Source: Fusobacterium perfoetens (GTDB taxonomy: Bacteria > Fusobacteriota > Fusobacteriia > Fusobacteriales > Fusobacteriaceae). From it: DNA of 64,000 bases. The notes under the pieces were generated by a model. That model worked only from the letters and a program-made list of their open reading frames with translations. It had not been told where the DNA came from and searched no databases. The stretch spans positions 1 to 64,000 of the forward strand of contig NZ_JADYTX010000006.1 in assembly GCF_021531475.1 (NCBI RefSeq), given 5' to 3'. The stretch's first letter is position 1; every line of letters starts with the position of its first letter. Made by a program: the position numbers and the translations under genes. Below, piece after piece: positions 28,998 to 36,800 of this stretch.

Positions 28998-28999
28998 AA

Positions 29000-29046
29000 A
29001 AAACTGCACTCAAAATCTTAATTGATTAGGGTGCAGTTTTTTATTT
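29000..29046. terminator. Bidirectional terminator between converging units
   Basis: AAAACTGCAC (29000-29009) pairs with GTGCAGTTTT (29031-29040), with T-tracts on both strands. It ends the PIN-PhoH gene and probably the leftward accessory operon. A second hairpin, CGCCAA (29048-29053) with TTGGCG (29069-29074), follows. Confidence 0.8.
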
Positions 29047-29139: not shown

Positions 29140-29829
29140 TTAACCCATTATTCTTTTTATGAGGTTGTGAACATTACTAACAAATTTTTCTTCATCAGAT
29201 GTTAATTCTCCTGTTTCTTTCGCATTTTCGCTATGCTTTTCAACAATTTTTTCCAAATTTTTTTTATCACTTAAAAACTCTTTGAATACTTTTTTTTCTT
29301 CTGTTCCCATTTGAAGTTCTTCATTTAATGAATCTTGAATATTATTAGATGATAAACTTTTAAAAAATGAACCACTCAAATTGTTAAAAAAATCAACAAA
29401 CGGCTGAACTAACTTTTCTGTAAATTCGTTTTCTTCTGTTAAGATGCCAATGTCTGATTTTTCTACTAAATATGTTCCTAGACCTTTTTCAGCAATATCA
29501 AAAGCTGTATTTGCTATACCAAAAAATTGTCTCATCTCTTCACTCTTAACTAATTCTGTTGTATCTTTATTTTCAGTCATTTTTTCAAAAACATTTTCTA
29601 ACTCATTATTATCATATTTTTTTTCAATTTCTGCTGTTAGTTTTTCTCTTTTTAAGACTTTTTTTATATCTTCTATTTCTTCTTCTGTTAAATCTCTATT
29701 TAATTTTCTTTTTAAAACTTTAATTAAAGCTGTCTCTATTTTTGAAAGAGGAATACTTTTCTTCTTTGACTCTTCCATCAATTCTTCGATTACTTCATTT
29801 ACAAATTCTTTTACCTCATTTTTTTCCAT
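29140..29829 (-). CDS. Acidic helical protein of the WYL-AAA cassette
   Basis: I do not recognise a family for this 229-residue protein. It is rich in Glu, Lys and Asn and is predicted to be almost wholly alpha-helical. The N-terminal 70 residues alternate charged helices (LSKIETALIKVLKRKL, LTEEEIEDIKKVLKRE). A central, less polar region has Phe-rich helices (FFGIANTAFDIAEKGLGTYL, FVDFFNNLSGSFFKSL). No signal peptide, transmembrane helix or catalytic motif is seen. It follows the AAA-FGE gene by 85 bases with its own GGAGAGG site, and is the last gene before the terminator. It may be an adaptor or immunity-type partner, which is a guess. Confidence 0.7.
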   Translation of the reverse strand: MEKNEVKEFVNEVIEELMEESKKKSIPLSKIETALIKVLKRKLNRDLTEEEIEDIKKVLKREKLTAEIEKKYDNNELENVFEKMTENKDTTELVKSEEMRQFFGIANTAFDIAEKGLGTYLVEKSDIGILTEENEFTEKLVQPFVDFFNNLSGSFFKSLSSNNIQDSLNEELQMGTEEKKVFKEFLSDKKNLEKIVEKHSENAKETGELTSDEEKFVSNVHNLIKRIMG

Positions 29830-29914
29830 TTAAAACCTCTCCTTTCATAATGTACAATCTACTTTTCATCAATAAAATAATTTTTTACGCTTTCATTTTA
29901 TTTAATAATACTTT

Positions 29915-32134
29915 TTATGCATTTCTTACTATACGAAGTCCTATAATATCATTTTTTTCACTTTCTTGAATGGAAAATCTCATCTTTATTTGACAATCTT
30001 TTGTATTCCAAGCTCCTCCTCTCAATATTCTTTTGCTATCAAAAGATACTTCTCCGGCAAAATCATAGCACCATTCCCATAAATTACCGCTACAATCATA
30101 TATCCCTAATTCATTTGGTCTTTTAGTTCCTATAGTATGTGTTTTAAATTTAGAGTTTTCTTTATACCAAGCAACCTCATCTATATTGTCACTTCCTGCA
30201 TACTTTGTATCAAAACTATTTTCTTGAATGGCTACTTCTCCACCACGAGCAAACCATTCCCATTCTACTTCTGTTGGAAGTCTGTATCCTTCTGTTTGTT
30301 TAAAGTTTGCTATTTTAGGAGTAACCTCTTTTCCATCTTTATAAATTATTTTTACTAAATTATTATCCTCTATTTTATAAACAGGTTTTAATCCATATTT
30401 TTCACTTAATTTATTACAAAATTCTAACGATTCTATCCAACTGATGTTTTCTACTGGATTTTTCCTTTCCAAATAATCGCTTGGATTATTTTTCATTATA
30501 TTTTCCCAATTAAATTGTGATATTAAATATTTTCCAACATATAAATCGCTTACTTTCTTCTCTACATTTGTAAAGCTTGGCTTATATTTTCCACCACGAA
30601 CTAATATCATATCTTTAAATACATCACTTTTTTTCTTTTCACCTTCTTTTAATGAGGCTGATTTTAGTTTAAATATTTCATAAGCTTTTTGTAATTCTGT
30701 TATTTTTTTCTCTATTGTGCTTTTCATAGAATCTGTTTTTTTAATTCCAAAAATAATGTCATTAGTATACATTATTTTATCTGCATTATCACTTAAAAAT
30801 AAATTTTCTACGGAAATTTTAACAGCCTCTTCTATATCAGCTCCACAAAATCCATCTGTGAGACTTGCTAATTTTCCTAAATCAATTAATTCTTCATTAT
30901 ATTTTCCACGTTTTTCAAGATGGATTCTAAATATCTCTTCTCTTTCATCTTTATTTGGAAAATCCACATAAAATATTTCATCAAATCTTCCTTTCCTTAA
31001 AAACTCTGGCGGAAATGAAGAAATATCATTAGCTGTTGCTACTACAAAAACTGTATTTTCTTTTTCTTGTAACCAAGTTAAAAATTGTCCAAACAATCTT
31101 TTTGTAATATCACTAGCTCCTCCTGATTGGTCTATTCCAGCAAAAGCTTTTTCTATCTCGTCTATCCATAAAATACAAGGACTTATTGATTCTGACATCT
31201 TAAGAGCCATTCTTAAATTATGTTCTGACTCTCCAACATATTTTCCAAGAAGTCTTCCTATATCAAGTCTTAAAAGTGGCACATTAAACATTCTTGAGGC
31301 TACTTTTGCAGTTAATGATTTTCCACAACCGGGCATTCCTACAAGCATCAATCCCTTTGGAGTATCTACACCAAATTTTTTTGCTTCATCAAGTCTACGG
31401 AAAATTTTTGCTTTATTTTCTAGCCACTCTTTTAGATTTTCAAGTCCACCTATATCTGAAATTTTTTCTTTGAAGTCTATAAGCTCTAATATCCCTGATT
31501 TTTTTATAATTTGACCTTTCTCTTTTATGATTTTTTGAATATTAGAAGTTGAAATTATATCCATCATATTAAGAATTTGAGTTATATACCATTTTGATAA
31601 ACCTTTTAAAGAAATAGCTATCTCTCCCAAATCATCTTGATTTACTTTTATTTTTCTTTCATTGGCTACCTCTTTTATGTATTCTTCAATTTCATCTTTA
31701 TCTAATATTGGTATTTCTACAATACTTATATAGTTTTCTAACTCTTTTGGAACTTGGATATTTTGTGAAACTATTATTATAGTTAAATTATAATCTAAAT
31801 TATAAACGTCTATTTCAGCTATTTTTTTAATCATTGCTAAAACTTCTGGATTTTCTAATTCATTATCTATATCTTTTAAAACTAAAAATACTTTCTCAAA
31901 TAATCCTAAGCTATAATTTTTATTTAAAAATTTAAATAGATTTACTTTTTCTTCTTCTAAAACTTTTTTAGTTTTAAAATCTACCTCTCCAATAGAACGA
32001 TATTCAAAAATTTTTGAAATATTTACTTCTTTAGCTCCTTCTTCTATCATTTTATCAATCTCTTTATAATCATAATGATTGATATATAAAATTGGTCTTT
32101 TAGCTTTTACATAAGTTGATATTTGATTATCCAT
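29915..32134 (-). CDS. Ycf46-type AAA+ ATPase fused to an FGE/SUMF1-like domain
   Basis: The 739-residue protein has three parts. Residues 1-200 resemble the degenerate N-terminal half of Ycf46-type AAA proteins (YVKAKRPILYINHYDY). Residues 225-470 are a classical AAA+ module: Walker A GMPGCGKS (266-273), Walker B ILWIDE (321-326), sensor ATAND (366-370), arginine fingers in FLRKGRFD and sensor-2 GFCGADIEEAV. Residues 508-739 are a formylglycine-generating-enzyme fold: MILVRGGKY, NPSDY.ERKNPVENISW.ES, YRLPTEVEWEWFARGG, GNLWEWCYD, ILRGGAWN and C-terminal GLRIVRNA. The paired active Cys of true FGE is not evident, so the domain is probably for binding. The ribosome site is AGGAGG. Confidence 0.85.
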   Translation of the reverse strand: MDNQISTYVKAKRPILYINHYDYKEIDKMIEEGAKEVNISKIFEYRSIGEVDFKTKKVLEEEKVNLFKFLNKNYSLGLFEKVFLVLKDIDNELENPEVLAMIKKIAEIDVYNLDYNLTIIIVSQNIQVPKELENYISIVEIPILDKDEIEEYIKEVANERKIKVNQDDLGEIAISLKGLSKWYITQILNMMDIISTSNIQKIIKEKGQIIKKSGILELIDFKEKISDIGGLENLKEWLENKAKIFRRLDEAKKFGVDTPKGLMLVGMPGCGKSLTAKVASRMFNVPLLRLDIGRLLGKYVGESEHNLRMALKMSESISPCILWIDEIEKAFAGIDQSGGASDITKRLFGQFLTWLQEKENTVFVVATANDISSFPPEFLRKGRFDEIFYVDFPNKDEREEIFRIHLEKRGKYNEELIDLGKLASLTDGFCGADIEEAVKISVENLFLSDNADKIMYTNDIIFGIKKTDSMKSTIEKKITELQKAYEIFKLKSASLKEGEKKKSDVFKDMILVRGGKYKPSFTNVEKKVSDLYVGKYLISQFNWENIMKNNPSDYLERKNPVENISWIESLEFCNKLSEKYGLKPVYKIEDNNLVKIIYKDGKEVTPKIANFKQTEGYRLPTEVEWEWFARGGEVAIQENSFDTKYAGSDNIDEVAWYKENSKFKTHTIGTKRPNELGIYDCSGNLWEWCYDFAGEVSFDSKRILRGGAWNTKDCQIKMRFSIQESEKNDIIGLRIVRNA

Positions 32135-32159
32135 CTTATTTTCCTCCTACTTTTTATTT

Positions 32160-32552
32160 TTACCAACCAAAAAATCCTGCAATACCACTAGCAACTGATG
32201 TGGTACAACCCCAAACTCCACTAGCTACTGCTTTTACTCCACTCCAAGCACAACTTGTCACAGTTTTTACTGCACTTATTCCAACACTTACCACTTTTTT
32301 TGCTCCACTTACAACTCCACCAACAATAGCTTTTGCTCCATTATATAATGGTTTTGCTATGGCTGTTCCAACTGTAGCAACTACTGACCCAACAACAACT
32401 GCCGCAACTGTTGTTGCTAACGCTCCTGCTCCCATCATTCCAGCTAGAGTTGCTATAGCTGTATTTGTTTTTGCTAACATCATTCCTTTTGATATTATCA
32501 TTCCAGCTGTAAAAGTTTCTCCCAAAGAGTTCATTCCCTCTTTAAAACTCAT
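32160..32552 (-). CDS. Small Gly/Ala/Val-rich hydrophobic protein
   Basis: The 130-residue protein is not of a family I recognise. After a polar N-terminus (MSFKEGMNSLGE) it is almost continuous small and hydrophobic residues: a segment about 30-70 (TLAGMMGAGALATTVAAVVVGSV and similar). Then come repeats of the form K-x-V-x-S-x-V/A-W-S-G-V-K-A-V-A-S-G-V-W-G, ending SGIAGFFGW. It has many Gly and two Cys in the tail. Such composition suits membrane insertion or a colicin-like hydrophobic hairpin. It lies between the nuclease-like gene (16-base gap) and the AAA-FGE gene (25-base gap). The + strand also stays open here, but lacks a ribosome site and runs against the operon. Confidence 0.65.
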   Translation of the reverse strand: MSFKEGMNSLGETFTAGMIISKGMMLAKTNTAIATLAGMMGAGALATTVAAVVVGSVVATVGTAIAKPLYNGAKAIVGGVVSGAKKVVSVGISAVKTVTSCAWSGVKAVASGVWGCTTSVASGIAGFFGW

Positions 32553-32568
32553 CTCTCCACTACCAACT

Positions 32569-33960
32569 TTAAATAGCCTCTATACTTGTAAAAGCCACAG
32601 CTGATATAAAAGTACTTTTAGCAAAAACTCCTTTTAAAACTCCTTTTTTGGCTGCTGTTGTCATAGCCCCGTGTACTGCTGTTGTAACTCCTGTAGTTGC
32701 TCCTGTTTTAATAGCTGTTTCCACAACTTCTTCTCCGCTAATTTCTTCGCCAGTAATTATTTTTTTACCTATATTCATTCCAACAGCAATAGCTCCAGAA
32801 TATATACTATTTCTAACAGCTTTATATCCTACTCTTTTTAAAACTTCATAAGTATTTACATCTTTTTCAAAACTTAAATTAAGAACATCCATATCCCCAC
32901 TTTGAGCTTTTTTTTGCATCTCCTTCGCTTCTTGTTTGCTTAGAGGTTTACTTTTTGCTCCACCATATTCTATTTTATCTACTCCATTAGGTATATCATT
33001 TACTTGGTCACTACTAACTAATTTTTTTTGAAAATAATATCTATACTCTCCTGATTCTCCTTTAAAATAGCTTTCTGTAGCCTCAGCGTCTTTTCCAAAT
33101 TTTGCTTGATATTTTCTAACTATTTCTTCACTACCATTTGAAATTTTTTTTATTACAATATCAACTGAATTTTTTCCATATACATCTGGTTTTAAATCCT
33201 CTGCTCTTAACTTTAATTCTTTTGTAGTAGCGTCTACATTAAAAGTATTGGCATGATATGATTCAGCTATAAAACCATCAAGATTTGGATTTTGATTAAT
33301 ACAACCATCTTGTCTCAATATCGTGTCTTGCATATTTGCATTAGCATTTTCTATTGCTTTGTCTATATTTCCAATATAATTATTTACATCTGTTTGACCT
33401 AAAGTTTTTCCTATTGATGTTACTGTATCTAAACTACTATCCTCTGAAATCTCCATTTCACTCAAAGTATAAATTTTATCAATAGCGTCATTTGTTAACT
33501 CTTCATCTAACTTTAAAAGAATTTCTTTTTTATTTTCTATTTTTTTAAATTCTTCATCATTTCCTATTTTTGTTGCAAAATATTCACTTGGATTTATTCC
33601 TAACTCTCCAGCTCTTTTTACTTCTTTATATATTTTATAACTTTCATTTGTTCCATTTACTACTTCATTTTTTAACTTTATTATCTCTTTTTCATCTAGC
33701 TCTGGAAAATCTTCCCTAAACATCAACATAAGCCATTCTTCTATAGACATCTTATCTTTATATTTAGAATAACTTTTTAAATATTTTTTTATTAATGATG
33801 ATAGTTCTTCTTTTTGTTTTTTTGTAAGAGTCTCTTCTTTTTTTAACTCATAGACCTCAAAATCTTTTCTCTCTTCCTCTGATACATCATCTACAATCTC
33901 GGCTACTAAATAATCTCCATTTTCATATTGATTTATGATTTCTCTTCTAATTGTCTTCAT
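32569..33960 (-). CDS. Putative PD-(D/E)XK-like nuclease with hydrophobic C-terminus
   Basis: The 463-residue protein starts with about 200 residues of charged helices (EEERKDFEVYELKKEE onward). Residues 226-300 hold a nuclease-like signature: G-F-I-A-E-S-Y-H-A with Glu233, then KPDVYGKNSVDIVI with Asp259/Asp267, then the Q-A-K motif at 285-287 in RKYQAKFGKDAEAT. The spacing E...D...QxK fits restriction-endonuclease folds. A KSKPLSKQEAKEMQKKAQ segment follows. The last 80 residues are Gly/Ala/Thr-rich and hydrophobic (SGAIAVGMNIG, KTGATTGVTTAVHGAMTTAA), like the next gene. Proteins of this plan occur near mobile or conflict genes in Firmicutes, from memory. Not experimentally characterised to my knowledge. 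Confidence 0.65.
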   Translation of the reverse strand: MKTIRREIINQYENGDYLVAEIVDDVSEEERKDFEVYELKKEETLTKKQKEELSSLIKKYLKSYSKYKDKMSIEEWLMLMFREDFPELDEKEIIKLKNEVVNGTNESYKIYKEVKRAGELGINPSEYFATKIGNDEEFKKIENKKEILLKLDEELTNDAIDKIYTLSEMEISEDSSLDTVTSIGKTLGQTDVNNYIGNIDKAIENANANMQDTILRQDGCINQNPNLDGFIAESYHANTFNVDATTKELKLRAEDLKPDVYGKNSVDIVIKKISNGSEEIVRKYQAKFGKDAEATESYFKGESGEYRYYFQKKLVSSDQVNDIPNGVDKIEYGGAKSKPLSKQEAKEMQKKAQSGDMDVLNLSFEKDVNTYEVLKRVGYKAVRNSIYSGAIAVGMNIGKKIITGEEISGEEVVETAIKTGATTGVTTAVHGAMTTAAKKGVLKGVFAKSTFISAVAFTSIEAI

Positions 33961-33970
33961 CTATCCCCCC

Positions 33971-34888
33971 TTATAAGACTTCAATATCTTTCCCTTGACT
34001 TAATATCCATTTATCAATACCTTTTCCAAAGACTTCTGCTGAAATTAAGTATCCATTCTCTATCTCCTCAATTACTTGTGCTGTTGGCACTTTATCAAGT
34101 ACAGCCTCTAAAGAATTTCCAAAATACTTAAATTTTATCTTTCTTAATTTTCCACCAGTCATAAATTGAACTCTTTTTCTAAACTCTCCCTCTTCAAATC
34201 TATCTTTATATGGGATTGGAAAATGCTCTTCTAAAACTTCAAAACTTCTTATTCTATCTATTCTATAAATTGTAGGAAATACATCATCTTTATTTTCAAA
34301 ATATTTTTCCTTATCAATTCCATCTATATGAGCAAGAACATAAAAATAATATTCTGAAAACATAATCCCCACTGGTAAAATAGTTCTCTCAACTAGTGCC
34401 TTGTCCATTCTTTCATAAGTTATTTTCATTTTAAAATGATTTTGTACAGCCTCTCCAATCTCCCAAAGATTACCTAAAAACTCTTTTTTATGTTGTAACT
34501 CTATATAATGAAACTTTTCATTTTCAACTAACTTTGATACTTTCAGGTAACTATCTTTTGGAACACATTGCTTAATAAGTTTATCTATTATTCCAACCAT
34601 TTCAGATTTTACAAAAGCTCTACTATCTAAAAGTATTTTACACACAGCTAAAATCTCACTATTCGTTAATTTTTGATTATCCTCATTTTTTAAAATATAC
34701 CCATTTGTTTTATCATCATAAACTATCTCTGAAAGATTATTAGTTGAAATTAAAAAATTTCTTAAATCACTAATATCTCTATGAATACTTCTTTCGCTTA
34801 CTTCATATTCTTGAGCTAATTTTTTTCTATTTACCTCTTTATTATTTAATAATCTTAAATAAATATCTAACATTCTTTGGTTTTTCAT
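33971..34888 (-). CDS. WYL-domain transcriptional regulator
   Basis: The 305-residue protein has an N-terminal HTH (about 5-60: LDIYLRLLNNKEVNRKKLAQEYEVSERSIHRDISDLR split by wing residues) and a central-to-C-terminal WYL-type ligand domain (about 150-230: ERTILPVGIMFSEYYFYVLAHIDG, YRIDRI, FEVLEEHFPIP). WYL regulators commonly sense nucleic-acid or nucleotide ligands and repress phage-defence operons (BrxR and CapW are characterised examples). It is the first gene of the leftward cassette, 10 bases before the next gene, with a perfect palindrome at its own promoter. That suggests autorepression of the whole operon. Confidence 0.85.
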   Translation of the reverse strand: MKNQRMLDIYLRLLNNKEVNRKKLAQEYEVSERSIHRDISDLRNFLISTNNLSEIVYDDKTNGYILKNEDNQKLTNSEILAVCKILLDSRAFVKSEMVGIIDKLIKQCVPKDSYLKVSKLVENEKFHYIELQHKKEFLGNLWEIGEAVQNHFKMKITYERMDKALVERTILPVGIMFSEYYFYVLAHIDGIDKEKYFENKDDVFPTIYRIDRIRSFEVLEEHFPIPYKDRFEEGEFRKRVQFMTGGKLRKIKFKYFGNSLEAVLDKVPTAQVIEEIENGYLISAEVFGKGIDKWILSQGKDIEVL

Positions 34889-34935
34889 AAGATTCCTCCC
34901 TAAATTTTATTTAAGATTATTTTATAATTTTTTAT

Positions 34936-34958
34936 ATGACATTTTTTGTCATTTTATA
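34936..34958 (-). promoter_or_regulatory. Palindromic operator and -10 of the WYL operon
   Basis: ATGACA (34936-34941) and TGTCAT (34947-34952) make a perfect inverted repeat with a 5-base spacer. On the minus strand TATAAA (34953-34958) lies directly upstream of it as a -10 box, which puts the palindrome over the predicted transcription start. The place is right for a repressor site. No clear -35 is seen. Confidence 0.5.
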
Positions 34959-35081
34959 CTAAAATATTTTAATTTTAATCTCATCTTAATTATACCTTAA
35001 AAATTAATAAAATCAAAATTTTCAAATTATTTTTTTACAAACACAGTTTTCCAAAATTGTGATTTTAATTTTTTTATTAAA

Positions 35082-35178
35082 TATAACTGATAAAATTTCT
35101 AAAAAATATATTTTTATCAGTTATAACTTATAAAAGTTATAATTTTATCTTTTTTATCAGTTATAACTGTGATATAAT
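35082..35178 (+). promoter_or_regulatory. Operator array and -10 box of the DUF4143 gene
   Basis: The word TTTTATCAGTTATA occurs at 35112-35125 and 35152-35165, and its inverse TATAACTGATAAAA at 35082-35095. Two copies contain the perfect palindrome AGTTATAACT (35119-35128 and 35159-35168). A further arm AGTTATAA is at 35135-35142. The last palindrome sits 4 bases before the -10 TATAAT (35173-35178), in the -35/-10 spacer. A dimeric repressor binding several sites is the simple reading; no linked repressor gene except WYL is nearby. Confidence 0.6.
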
Positions 35179-35197
35179 ATTTATAGAGGTGATTAAT

Positions 35198-36403
35198 ATG
35201 ATAAAAAGAGACTTGTATCTAAATAAAATTAAACCGTTTATTGATAAAGAGATTATAAAAGTTTTAACTGGAATTAGAAGAAGTGGAAAATCTGTTATGC
35301 TAAAACTTTTGATGAATGAAATTTTAAGTCAAGAAGTATCCAAAGAACAGATTATTTATCTTAATTTTGAAGATTTAAAAAATAGATCTCTTTGCTCTTT
35401 TGATGTTCTTCACAATTATATTTTAAAAAACTCAGAAAAAAATAAAAAAACTTATCTTTTTTTAGATGAGATACAGGAAGTTACCTCTTGGGAAAAATGT
35501 ATAAACTCCTTAAGAGTACAAGAAGATTACCAATTTGATATTTATATCACTGGTTCAAATGCAAGACTTTTATCTGGAGAGTTAGCCACATATCTTGCTG
35601 GAAGATATGTAGAGTTTATAATTTATCCATTTTCTTTTAAGGAGTTTTTAGAGGCTATCTCTCAAATAAAACCACTTTCAAAAGCTCAAGCTTTTAATGA
35701 ATATATAAAATTTGGTGGAATGCCATTTTTACACAACTTAAATTTTCAATTAGAGCCAAGTCTTCAATATTTAAAAGATGTCTATTCTTCAATTATTTTA
35801 AAAGATATTACCCAAAGAAATAATATAAGAGATATTGATTTATTAGAAAAAATCATCACTTATGTTATAATGAATATTGGAAATACTTTTTCAGCTACTT
35901 CAATATCAAAATTTTTTAAAAGTGAAAATAGAAAGACTTCTCCTGAAACAATTTTAAACTATATTAAAGTTTGTGAAGAAGCTTTCCTTATTTATAAAGT
36001 TCAAAGAAATGATTTGATTGGAAAAAAAATATTAAGTGTAAACGAAAAATATTATATAGCAGACCACGGAATAAGAGAGGCTATATTTGAAAATAATCAA
36101 AGAGATATAAATCAAATTCTTGAAAATATTATCTATATTGAGATGTTAAGAAGAGGGTATGAGGTAAAAATTGGAAAAATAAATGATTTAGAAGTTGATT
36201 TTATTTGCACAAAATATGACGAAAAAATTTATATCCAAGTTACCTATCTTTTGGCATCTCCAGAAACTATTGAAAGAGAATTTTCAGTGCTTGAGTTAAT
36301 AAAAGATAATTTTCCAAAATATGTTGTTTCTATGGATCAATTTGATATGTCAAGAAATGGAATTAAGCATTATAATATAATTGATTTTTTATTGGGGGAA
36401 TAA
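35198..36403 (+). CDS. AAA ATPase with DUF4143 C-terminal domain
   Basis: From ATG 35198 the protein is 401 residues. It has the COG1373 layout. An N-terminal ATPase has Walker A LTGIRRSGKS (about 25-34) and Walker B TYLFLDEIQEV, sensor YITGSNARLLSGE, and the GRYVEFIIYPFSFKEF motif. The C-terminal DUF4143 part has LLEKIITYV.MNIG, YYIADHGIREA and a restriction-fold-like end (EN..YIEMLRRGYEV, EVDFICTKYDEKIYIQV). The ATG is preferred to a GTG 9 bases upstream that lies within the GAGGTG ribosome site. Function is unknown; such genes are widespread, often multicopy and mobile in anaerobes. Confidence 0.85.
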   Translation: MIKRDLYLNKIKPFIDKEIIKVLTGIRRSGKSVMLKLLMNEILSQEVSKEQIIYLNFEDLKNRSLCSFDVLHNYILKNSEKNKKTYLFLDEIQEVTSWEKCINSLRVQEDYQFDIYITGSNARLLSGELATYLAGRYVEFIIYPFSFKEFLEAISQIKPLSKAQAFNEYIKFGGMPFLHNLNFQLEPSLQYLKDVYSSIILKDITQRNNIRDIDLLEKIITYVIMNIGNTFSATSISKFFKSENRKTSPETILNYIKVCEEAFLIYKVQRNDLIGKKILSVNEKYYIADHGIREAIFENNQRDINQILENIIYIEMLRRGYEVKIGKINDLEVDFICTKYDEKIYIQVTYLLASPETIEREFSVLELIKDNFPKYVVSMDQFDMSRNGIKHYNIIDFLLGE

Positions 36404-36569: not shown

Positions 36570-36800
36570 ATGGAAAGCGTATTAACAGTCTTATTATTCA
36601 TATTTGCTTTAGCCTTAATAGTCCTAGTCCTAATCCAACCAGATAGGAGTCACGGAATGTCTGGTAGTATGGGAATGGGAAGTGCTAATACAGTATTTGG
36701 ACTTTCTAAAGATGGTGGACCACTTGCAAAAGCAACAAAAATAGTAGCTACACTTTTTATTGTAATAGCTTTATTTTTATACCTATACTCAGCGAAATAA
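36570..36800 (+). CDS. secG: SecG preprotein translocase subunit
   Basis: The 76-residue protein has two transmembrane helices (about 2-22 and 54-73) flanking a Gly/Ser/Met-rich loop with GSANTVFG, the SecG signature. ALIVLVLIQPDRSHG ends helix 1. It is the non-essential third subunit of SecYEG. The ribosome site AAGGAGG is ideal. An imperfect hairpin with AGACG/CGTCT arms follows (about 36811-36834), just before rarA. Confidence 0.95.
   Translation: MESVLTVLLFIFALALIVLVLIQPDRSHGMSGSMGMGSANTVFGLSKDGGPLAKATKIVATLFIVIALFLYLYSAK

What the first reader, a model, noticed from the sequence alone, without database searches (positions are those of the whole stretch)
29140..34958. Five-gene WYL-led cassette with an AAA-FGE fusion: candidate undescribed defence or conflict system
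Sequence shows five leftward genes with short gaps and one terminator: WYL regulator, nuclease-like protein, Gly/Ala hydrophobic protein, AAA+ ATPase fused to an FGE-like domain, acidic helical protein. Known: WYL repressors (BrxR, CapW) guard phage-defence operons, and FGE-type domains linked to NTPases occur in bacterial conflict systems. Inference: an ATPase with a recognition domain controls a nuclease and/or a membrane effector. I know no named system with this set.
Basis: partly seen in the sequence, partly recalled or inferred. Interest (0 to 1): 0.8.

Follow-up and report, generated by a model that had tools for sequence, protein, structure and literature searches.

The report
Hypervariable-sensor ATPase with nuclease-like membrane partner
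A movable gene island in a Fusobacteriota genome encodes a protein-remodelling ATPase carrying a fast-changing recognition domain, next to a nuclease-like membrane protein; relatives of this pair occur together in many bacterial phyla, so it looks like an undescribed, modular defence or conflict system.

Summary
The five ORFs are real, but their annotation needs revising. The "Gly/Ala protein" is the C-terminal glycine-zipper part of the "nuclease" protein (G2), split off here by a frame break; Leptotrichia and Cetobacterium have one 585-589-aa ORF. The acidic gene has no relatives found and is not core. The core is a WYL regulator, G2 and an AAA-FGE ATPase. Two sister genomes have an empty site between phoH and secG, so the cassette plus a DUF4143 ATPase gene form an island.

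G2 modules lie next to this ATPase in 58 of 80 loci from many phyla, and on plasmids. Elsewhere a third family (M288) accompanies them, sometimes fused to FGE, DnaJ-C or dynamin domains. The FGE domain resembles the lectin-fold protein TvpA and lacks the catalytic cysteine pair. In five Leptotrichia its C-terminal loop is only 17-37% identical, while the ATPase parts are 86-99% identical; most carriers have no reverse transcriptase.

Best reading: a lectin-fold sensor on an AAA unfoldase controls a nuclease/membrane effector. Conflict function is inferred, not shown. No profile library or paper searched names the system. It is a new variant of NTPase-lectin sensor conflict systems.

The parts
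33971..34888 (-). WYL regulator, 305 aa (HTH_11 + WYL)
   Evidence: Pfam HTH_11 1.2e-8, WYL 4.1e-7; homologous WYL genes near the ATPase in 11 of 80 loci; another WYL protein precedes G2 in Leptotrichia L124
32569..33960 (-). G2, first part, 463 aa: N-terminal helical domain, nuclease-like domain, start of the glycine-rich C domain
   Evidence: 30-sequence alignment; AF2 model of the Leptotrichia homologue
32905..33393 (-). Nuclease-like domain of G2 (residues 190-352; E233, D267, Q285, K287)
   Evidence: The four residues are invariant in 30 of 30 sequences; helix-strand-strand-strand-helix in a confident part of the model; homology to known nucleases not confirmed
32160..32552 (-). G2, second part (the 'Gly/Ala protein', 130 aa): glycine-zipper / hydrophobic C-terminal domain, in another frame
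   Evidence: Fused to the first part in Leptotrichia and Cetobacterium; homology continues through the junction; one hydrophobic stretch
29915..32134 (-). AAA-FGE ATPase, 739 aa
   Evidence: Pfam AAA 8.1e-29, FGE-sulfatase 2e-25; Walker A at residue 266, Walker B at 320, YVG at 299, sensor 1 at 366, RKGRFD at 380
29915..30634 (-). FGE-type lectin-fold domain (about residues 501-739)
   Evidence: Best solved relative is TvpA 2y3c, 6.8e-28
29942..30031 (-). C-terminal loop of the FGE domain (about residues 702-731), equivalent of the loop that is hypervariable in Leptotrichia
   Evidence: Alignment and dN/dS comparison among five Leptotrichia alleles
29140..29829 (-). Acidic helical protein, 229 aa; membership in the system doubtful
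   Evidence: No homologue in 60 related genomes or in the fetched loci
28998..29042 (-). Intrinsic terminator at the end of the operon
   Evidence: Hairpin -17.4 kcal/mol, z -5.3, followed by T-rich sequence
34989..35016 (-). Promoter-like site upstream of the WYL gene (TTGATT-16-TATAAT)
   Evidence: Consensus scan only, 10 of 12; not above what chance allows in this AT-rich region
35189..36403 (+). AAA_14/DUF4143 ATPase gene inside the same insertion; functional link unknown
   Evidence: Pfam AAA_14 3.9e-37, DUF4143 2.8e-16; PADLOC PDC-S01 2.4e-162; absent from the empty sites

Best explanation
A mobile, modular conflict (probably anti-invader) module. Shown: a WYL-family gene heads an operon for G2 (N-terminal helical domain, nuclease-like domain, glycine-zipper C-terminal domain) and for an AAA+ ATPase with intact motor motifs and a C-terminal lectin-fold FGE-type domain. 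Shown: G2 and this ATPase family are linked across phyla, and in relatives the FGE domain varies most in its C-terminal loop. Inferred: the FGE domain is a non-catalytic sensor that binds an invader-derived ligand through that loop. Inferred: binding switches the ATPase, which pulls on or assembles G2, so that the nuclease-like domain attacks nucleic acid and/or the glycine-zipper region enters the membrane, stopping the infection or the cell. Inferred: the WYL protein keeps the operon low until a signal appears. In other phyla the separate M288 protein probably carries the sensor that is fused to the ATPase here. In this genome the split in G2 may give a two-chain effector or may have inactivated it.
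For: Linkage of ATPase, G2 modules and M288, all codirectional, in 58 of 80 loci each. WYL + G2 + AAA-FGE in Leptotrichia. Invariant E, D, QxK in 30 of 30 G2 proteins in a matching predicted topology. Serial GxxxG motifs in relatives and Gly-zipper_Omp at the cut-off in L018. Motor motifs and YVG pore-loop motif intact. FGE domain closest to TvpA. Loop 17-37% identical with dN 0.5-1.5 while AAA is 86-99% identical and G2 dN is 0.01-0.03. M288-FGE fusion beside the ATPase in L064. Island with an empty site in sister genomes. Defence-type neighbours near G2 loci (type III methyltransferase, BnzB, PDC-M09A), none among 73 neighbours of ATPase-only loci. Precedent for NTPase-CLec antigen sensors: PMC10907252, PMC7159879.
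Against: No experiment. The nuclease assignment failed PDB profile, Foldseek and Mrr comparisons. The defence-neighbour counts are small and the two sets are not matched by taxon. Loop variability rests on five Leptotrichia alleles. G2 is split in the window, and the nuclease-like domain is absent from many related loci, so it cannot be the only effector.
Confidence: 0.55

Rival explanations
1. A stress or protein-quality-control module: the ATPase is a CDC48- or Ycf46-like unfoldase that extracts or assembles the glycine-zipper membrane protein for envelope homeostasis, and the nuclease-like domain is a structural or nucleic-acid-binding fold.
For: The AAA domain is closest in sequence to CDC48/VCP-type unfoldases. 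The N and C modules of G2 persist without the nuclease-like domain in many loci. A DnaJ-C fusion of M288 in L049.
Against: Sporadic island distribution, presence on conjugative plasmids, WYL control, defence-type neighbours and a hypervariable loop are unusual for housekeeping.
Confidence: 0.2
2. A self-recognition or inter-bacterial competition system (polymorphic-toxin-like): the variable FGE loop recognises kin or rival proteins and G2 is the toxin.
For: A nuclease-like domain with a membrane-type domain, and one allele per strain with a variable recognition loop.
Against: No secretion gene, secretion signal or immunity gene was recognised in the cassette. The nuclease-like domain is central, not a C-terminal toxin tip.
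Confidence: 0.1
3. In this genome the cassette is a decaying remnant: G2 is frame-broken and the operon no longer works, although the family is functional elsewhere.
For: Frame break between 32569 and 32552 with homology continuing in another frame; no G2 in six congeneric genomes.
Against: All other ORFs and the ATPase motifs are intact. The second part keeps a 130-aa open frame with an ATG 16 nt after the stop, so coupled translation is possible. In Bacteroidota the N and C modules are separate genes. This rival is compatible with the best explanation for the family.
Confidence: 0.3

Closest known systems
NTPase-CLec (FGE/FGS) putative antigen sensors of conflict systems: STAND-CLec, MoxR-vWA ternary systems, AAA-CLec targets in CPR bacteria (PMC10907252, PMC7159879)
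   Same: A C-terminal FGE-type lectin-fold domain with a variable C-terminal loop on or beside an NTPase that would act as transducer to an effector
   Different: A CDC48-like AAA ATPase instead of STAND or MoxR; a G2 nuclease-like/glycine-zipper partner; no vWA or VMAP protein; no resident diversity-generating retroelement in most carriers
Treponema denticola TvpA (2y3c)
   Same: Best solved relative of the FGE domain (6.8e-28)
   Different: TvpA is diversified by a DGR (established knowledge; PMC7159879); here the domain sits on an ATPase and no template copy was found
IetAS (IetA ATPase + IetS protease)
   Same: Both have an AAA ATPase (PADLOC IetA 7e-25)
   Different: The IteA NCBIfam score is 77.5 against a cut-off of 510; no protease partner
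TerY-P triad clusters (vWA, PP2C, kinase)
   Same: A plasmid relative has VWA-G2-AAA beside CARF-PDDEXK, PP2C and kinase genes
   Different: None of the triad genes is in the window cassette; published H. pylori clusters (PMC4978471) do not name a G2-like protein
Ycf46-like AAA ATPases
   Same: About 500-residue layout with an N-terminal region before one AAA domain; the label is from memory
   Different: Most distant members in the census stand without G2 or M288 and without defence-type neighbours

Membership tests
PD-(D/E)xK nuclease superfamily (G2 middle domain) | Conserved E ... D ... (D/E/Q)xK residues | tested here: met
   E233, D267, Q285, K287 in 30 of 30 sequences
PD-(D/E)xK nuclease superfamily (G2 middle domain) | Alpha-beta-beta-beta-alpha core fold, or detectable homology to a member | tested here: inconclusive
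   The order of elements in the confident model fits, but Foldseek, PDB profile and hhalign to Mrr_cat gave nothing significant
PD-(D/E)xK nuclease superfamily (G2 middle domain) | Metal-dependent nuclease activity | not testable with these tools
   Needs biochemistry
Catalytic formylglycine-generating enzyme | Pair of active-site cysteines after the GGS-aromatic motif (from own knowledge) | tested here: not met
   Window reads GGAWNTKDCQIKMRF with a single Cys out of register, and the pair is not conserved in Leptotrichia
DGR variable protein | FGE/CLec fold with a hypervariable C-terminal region | tested here: met
   TvpA match; loop variability in Leptotrichia relatives
DGR variable protein | Reverse transcriptase and template repeat | tested here: not met
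   No reverse transcriptase in four of seven carrier genomes; no second copy of the loop region in the seven genomes
vWA-MoxR / VMAP ternary conflict systems | vWA protein, MoxR ATPase and VMAP protein | tested here: not met
   None recognised in the cassette
IetAS | IetA above its curated cut-off, with an IetS protease | tested here: not met
   77.5 against 510 bits; no protease among the five ORFs
WYL defence regulators (BrxR/CapW-like) | DNA-binding HTH plus WYL domain | tested here: met
WYL defence regulators (BrxR/CapW-like) | Repression of a defence operon through an operator | not tested
   Repeats lie upstream at 35081-35168 but binding is unknown
Ycf46-like AAA ATPases | Homology to reference Ycf46 proteins | not tested
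   No Ycf46 model was met in the libraries; the label is from memory

The most novel reading that the evidence does not exclude
A widespread, unnamed modular immune-like system: AAA unfoldase + nuclease-like/glycine-zipper membrane effector + interchangeable sensors (FGE, DnaJ-C or dynamin on M288, or FGE fused to the ATPase), in which the lectin-fold sensor loop is hypervariable without a resident diversity-generating retroelement.
Probability: 0.45. Interest if true: 0.82.

Novelty: new variant of a known kind. Interest (0 to 1): 0.66.

Why it matters
If right, it adds a cross-phylum conflict system whose linked core families (G2, M288) are missing from the profile libraries searched. It also offers a case in which an antigen-sensor-like lectin-fold domain varies in one loop without a resident retroelement, so ligand recognition, ATPase switching and effector release could be tested with intact relatives in laboratory strains.

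Tried and rejected
Prophage or phage module: a viral-contig scan for G2 found nothing; only one unannotated 4.6-kb 'Bacteriophage sp.' record matched. DGR diversification: rejected for most carriers. Catalytic FGE: rejected. IetAS and MoxR/vWA/VMAP membership: rejected. Fold searches with the G2 and M288 models gave no significant match; whole-chain G2 was a poor query because its C-terminus is modelled at low confidence. Profile comparison of the nuclease-like domain with the PDB and with Mrr_cat gave nothing. Literature searches for Ycf46, FGE + AAA and TerY + WYL found no description of the G2-AAA pair. My first guess at the PADLOC-positive neighbours was wrong; three were then identified, the others were not pinned down.
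Full report
OBSERVATION. The window carries five minus-strand ORFs between phoH and a DUF4143 ATPase gene: WYL regulator (33971-34888), 463-aa protein (32569-33960), 130-aa Gly/Ala ORF (32160-32552), 739-aa AAA-FGE (29915-32134) and 229-aa acidic protein (29140-29829). The terminator is real: a hairpin at 28998-29042 with -17.4 kcal/mol, z -5.3. Pfam supports WYL, AAA and FGE only; the other three ORFs match no family convincingly in Pfam, NCBIfam, PADLOC or PHROGs.

THE GLY/ALA ORF IS PART OF G2. In five Leptotrichia genomes and one Cetobacterium the 463-aa and 130-aa sequences are one ORF of 585-589 aa. In the window the 463-aa frame ends, and the same homology goes on in another frame through the junction (window FKVGSGEMSFKEG, Leptotrichia FKLGSGEISLGEA). 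So the window has a split version. The second part has its own ATG 16 nt after the stop, so it may still be made; that is inference.

ISLAND. Sister genomes G002 and G005 have phoH, a secG-like gene and rarA with only about 450 bp between phoH and rarA. In the window this gap is 7.9 kb and holds the cassette, the DUF4143 ATPase gene (PADLOC PDC-S01) and the secG-like gene at 36570-36800. No G2 was found in six congeners. The cassette is an acquired segment or was lost by the sisters; its patchy occurrence favours acquisition.

FAMILY CENSUS. A genome-collection search with the ATPase kept the best 80 loci. With profiles made here, 58 of 80 have a G2 module (N domain, nuclease-like domain or glycine-zipper C domain) within 6 kb, all codirectional; 31 have the nuclease-like domain; 58 have a third family, M288 ('MAKTIKF...RWLxVRGY'); 11 have a WYL homologous to the window's. 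In Moorena, Ignavibacteriales, Sulfurovum and others the nuclease-like domain is missing while the C domain, and often the N domain, stay; in Bacteroidota N and C are separate genes. M288 is fused to FGE in L064, to a DnaJ C-terminal domain in L049 and to a dynamin GTPase in L057. Its model is confident (pLDDT 90) but matches no solved fold significantly. M288 was not found in the Fusobacteriota loci; there the FGE domain sits on the ATPase itself. The M288-FGE fusion next to the ATPase in L064 suggests that M288 is the usual sensor carrier (inference). Fifteen enterobacterial plasmids, ten predicted conjugative, carry the nuclease-like domain at 50-51% identity. The one read in detail has VWA-G2-AAA beside CARF-PDDEXK, PP2C and kinase genes.

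NUCLEASE-LIKE DOMAIN. E233, D267, Q285 and K287 are invariant in 30 of 30 sequences. The model of the Leptotrichia homologue is confident for this domain and shows a helix with E201, strands near D238 and Q252-K254, then a helix. That fits the PD-(D/E)xK pattern. Sequence, profile and fold searches did not confirm homology, so the assignment is a pattern-based inference. The C-terminus has serial GxxxG motifs in relatives, with a Pfam Gly-zipper_Omp match just at the cut-off in L018.

ATPASE AND SENSOR. Walker A, Walker B, sensor 1, arginine-finger and YVG pore-loop motifs are intact, as in threading AAA unfoldases (established for CDC48/PAN-type enzymes). The FGE domain's best PDB match is TvpA (6.8e-28), ahead of true FGEs (2e-6), and the catalytic cysteine pair is absent. 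Among five Leptotrichia alleles, the loop between RxLRGG and the end FRIVRTI is 17-37% identical with indels and dN 0.5-1.5, while AAA parts are 86-99% identical (dN 0.002-0.09) and G2 has dN 0.01-0.03. L126 and L128 are 99% identical in AAA and 20% in the loop. In the loop dN is about equal to or above dS in most pairs, but dS is itself high and alignment of so divergent a stretch is uncertain, so this shows fast divergence rather than proving positive selection. Four of seven carrier genomes have no reverse transcriptase, and no second copy of the region was found. The loop therefore varies without a resident DGR in most carriers, by mutation or by recombination with unseen donors; which one is not known.

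DEFENCE CONTEXT. Of 90 neighbours of G2-bearing loci, several hit PADLOC at E below 1e-15: a type III methyltransferase in L021, BnzB and PDC-M09A side by side in L014, and others matching PDC-S05 and JukA. None of 73 neighbours of ATPase-only loci did. The two sets were not matched by taxon and the counts are small, so this is suggestive only. In one Leptotrichia locus an Abi_2 gene follows the cassette.

MECHANISM AND KNOWN KINDS. The most likely working is sensor (FGE loop), switch (AAA), effector (G2 nuclease-like domain and/or membrane insertion), with WYL control. Published work proposes CLec domains on NTPases as antigen sensors, with the NTPase as transducer (PMC10907252), and FGS domains in ternary conflict systems (PMC7159879). 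This cassette would work like those but lacks their defining partners, and in most carriers a DGR, so it is filed as a new variant, not as a member. No paper found in six searches describes the G2-AAA pair; subscription literature was not searchable.

Noticed in passing
L124-L128, C-terminal loop of the FGE domain of AAA-FGE proteins: The loop is 17-37% identical between Leptotrichia species although the ATPase part is up to 99% identical; most of these genomes have no reverse transcriptase.
   Followed up: yes
window 35189-36403: A DUF4143 ATPase gene (PADLOC candidate PDC-S01) lies divergently beside the WYL gene inside the same insertion.
   Followed up: partly
window 35081-35168: Repeated TTTTTATCAGTTATAACT motifs, two exact copies 40 bp apart plus an inverted partial copy, lie between the WYL and DUF4143 genes; possible operators.
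   Followed up: no
L130 7903-18450 (plasmid NZ_CP051549.1): A plasmid locus with VWA, G2, AAA (with a biotin/lipoyl-like C-terminus), CARF-PDDEXK, PP2C, kinase and a large AAA/helicase-type protein; similar nuclease-like domains are on 14 further enterobacterial plasmids.
   Followed up: partly
L057 6533-9445; L049 7817-9667; L064 2605-4398: The M288 N-terminal domain is fused to a dynamin GTPase, to a DnaJ C-terminal domain and to an FGE domain, in each case next to the ATPase.
   Followed up: partly
L034 3891-13232 (Anaerobiospirillum): Two M288-AAA-G2 sets lie in tandem.
   Followed up: no
L170 7643-9982 (G023): An AAA-FGE protein about 60% identical to the window's stands alone, without G2 or WYL nearby.
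   Followed up: no
L171 7093-8013 and L172 7290-8210: Congeneric genomes carry a separate 306-aa protein with an FGE domain 50-53% identical to the window's, preceded by a helical stretch.
   Followed up: no
NZ_CP084075.1 in the plasmids collection: A 2.1-Mb Fusobacterium vincentii record, apparently a chromosome, is listed among plasmids.
   Followed up: no
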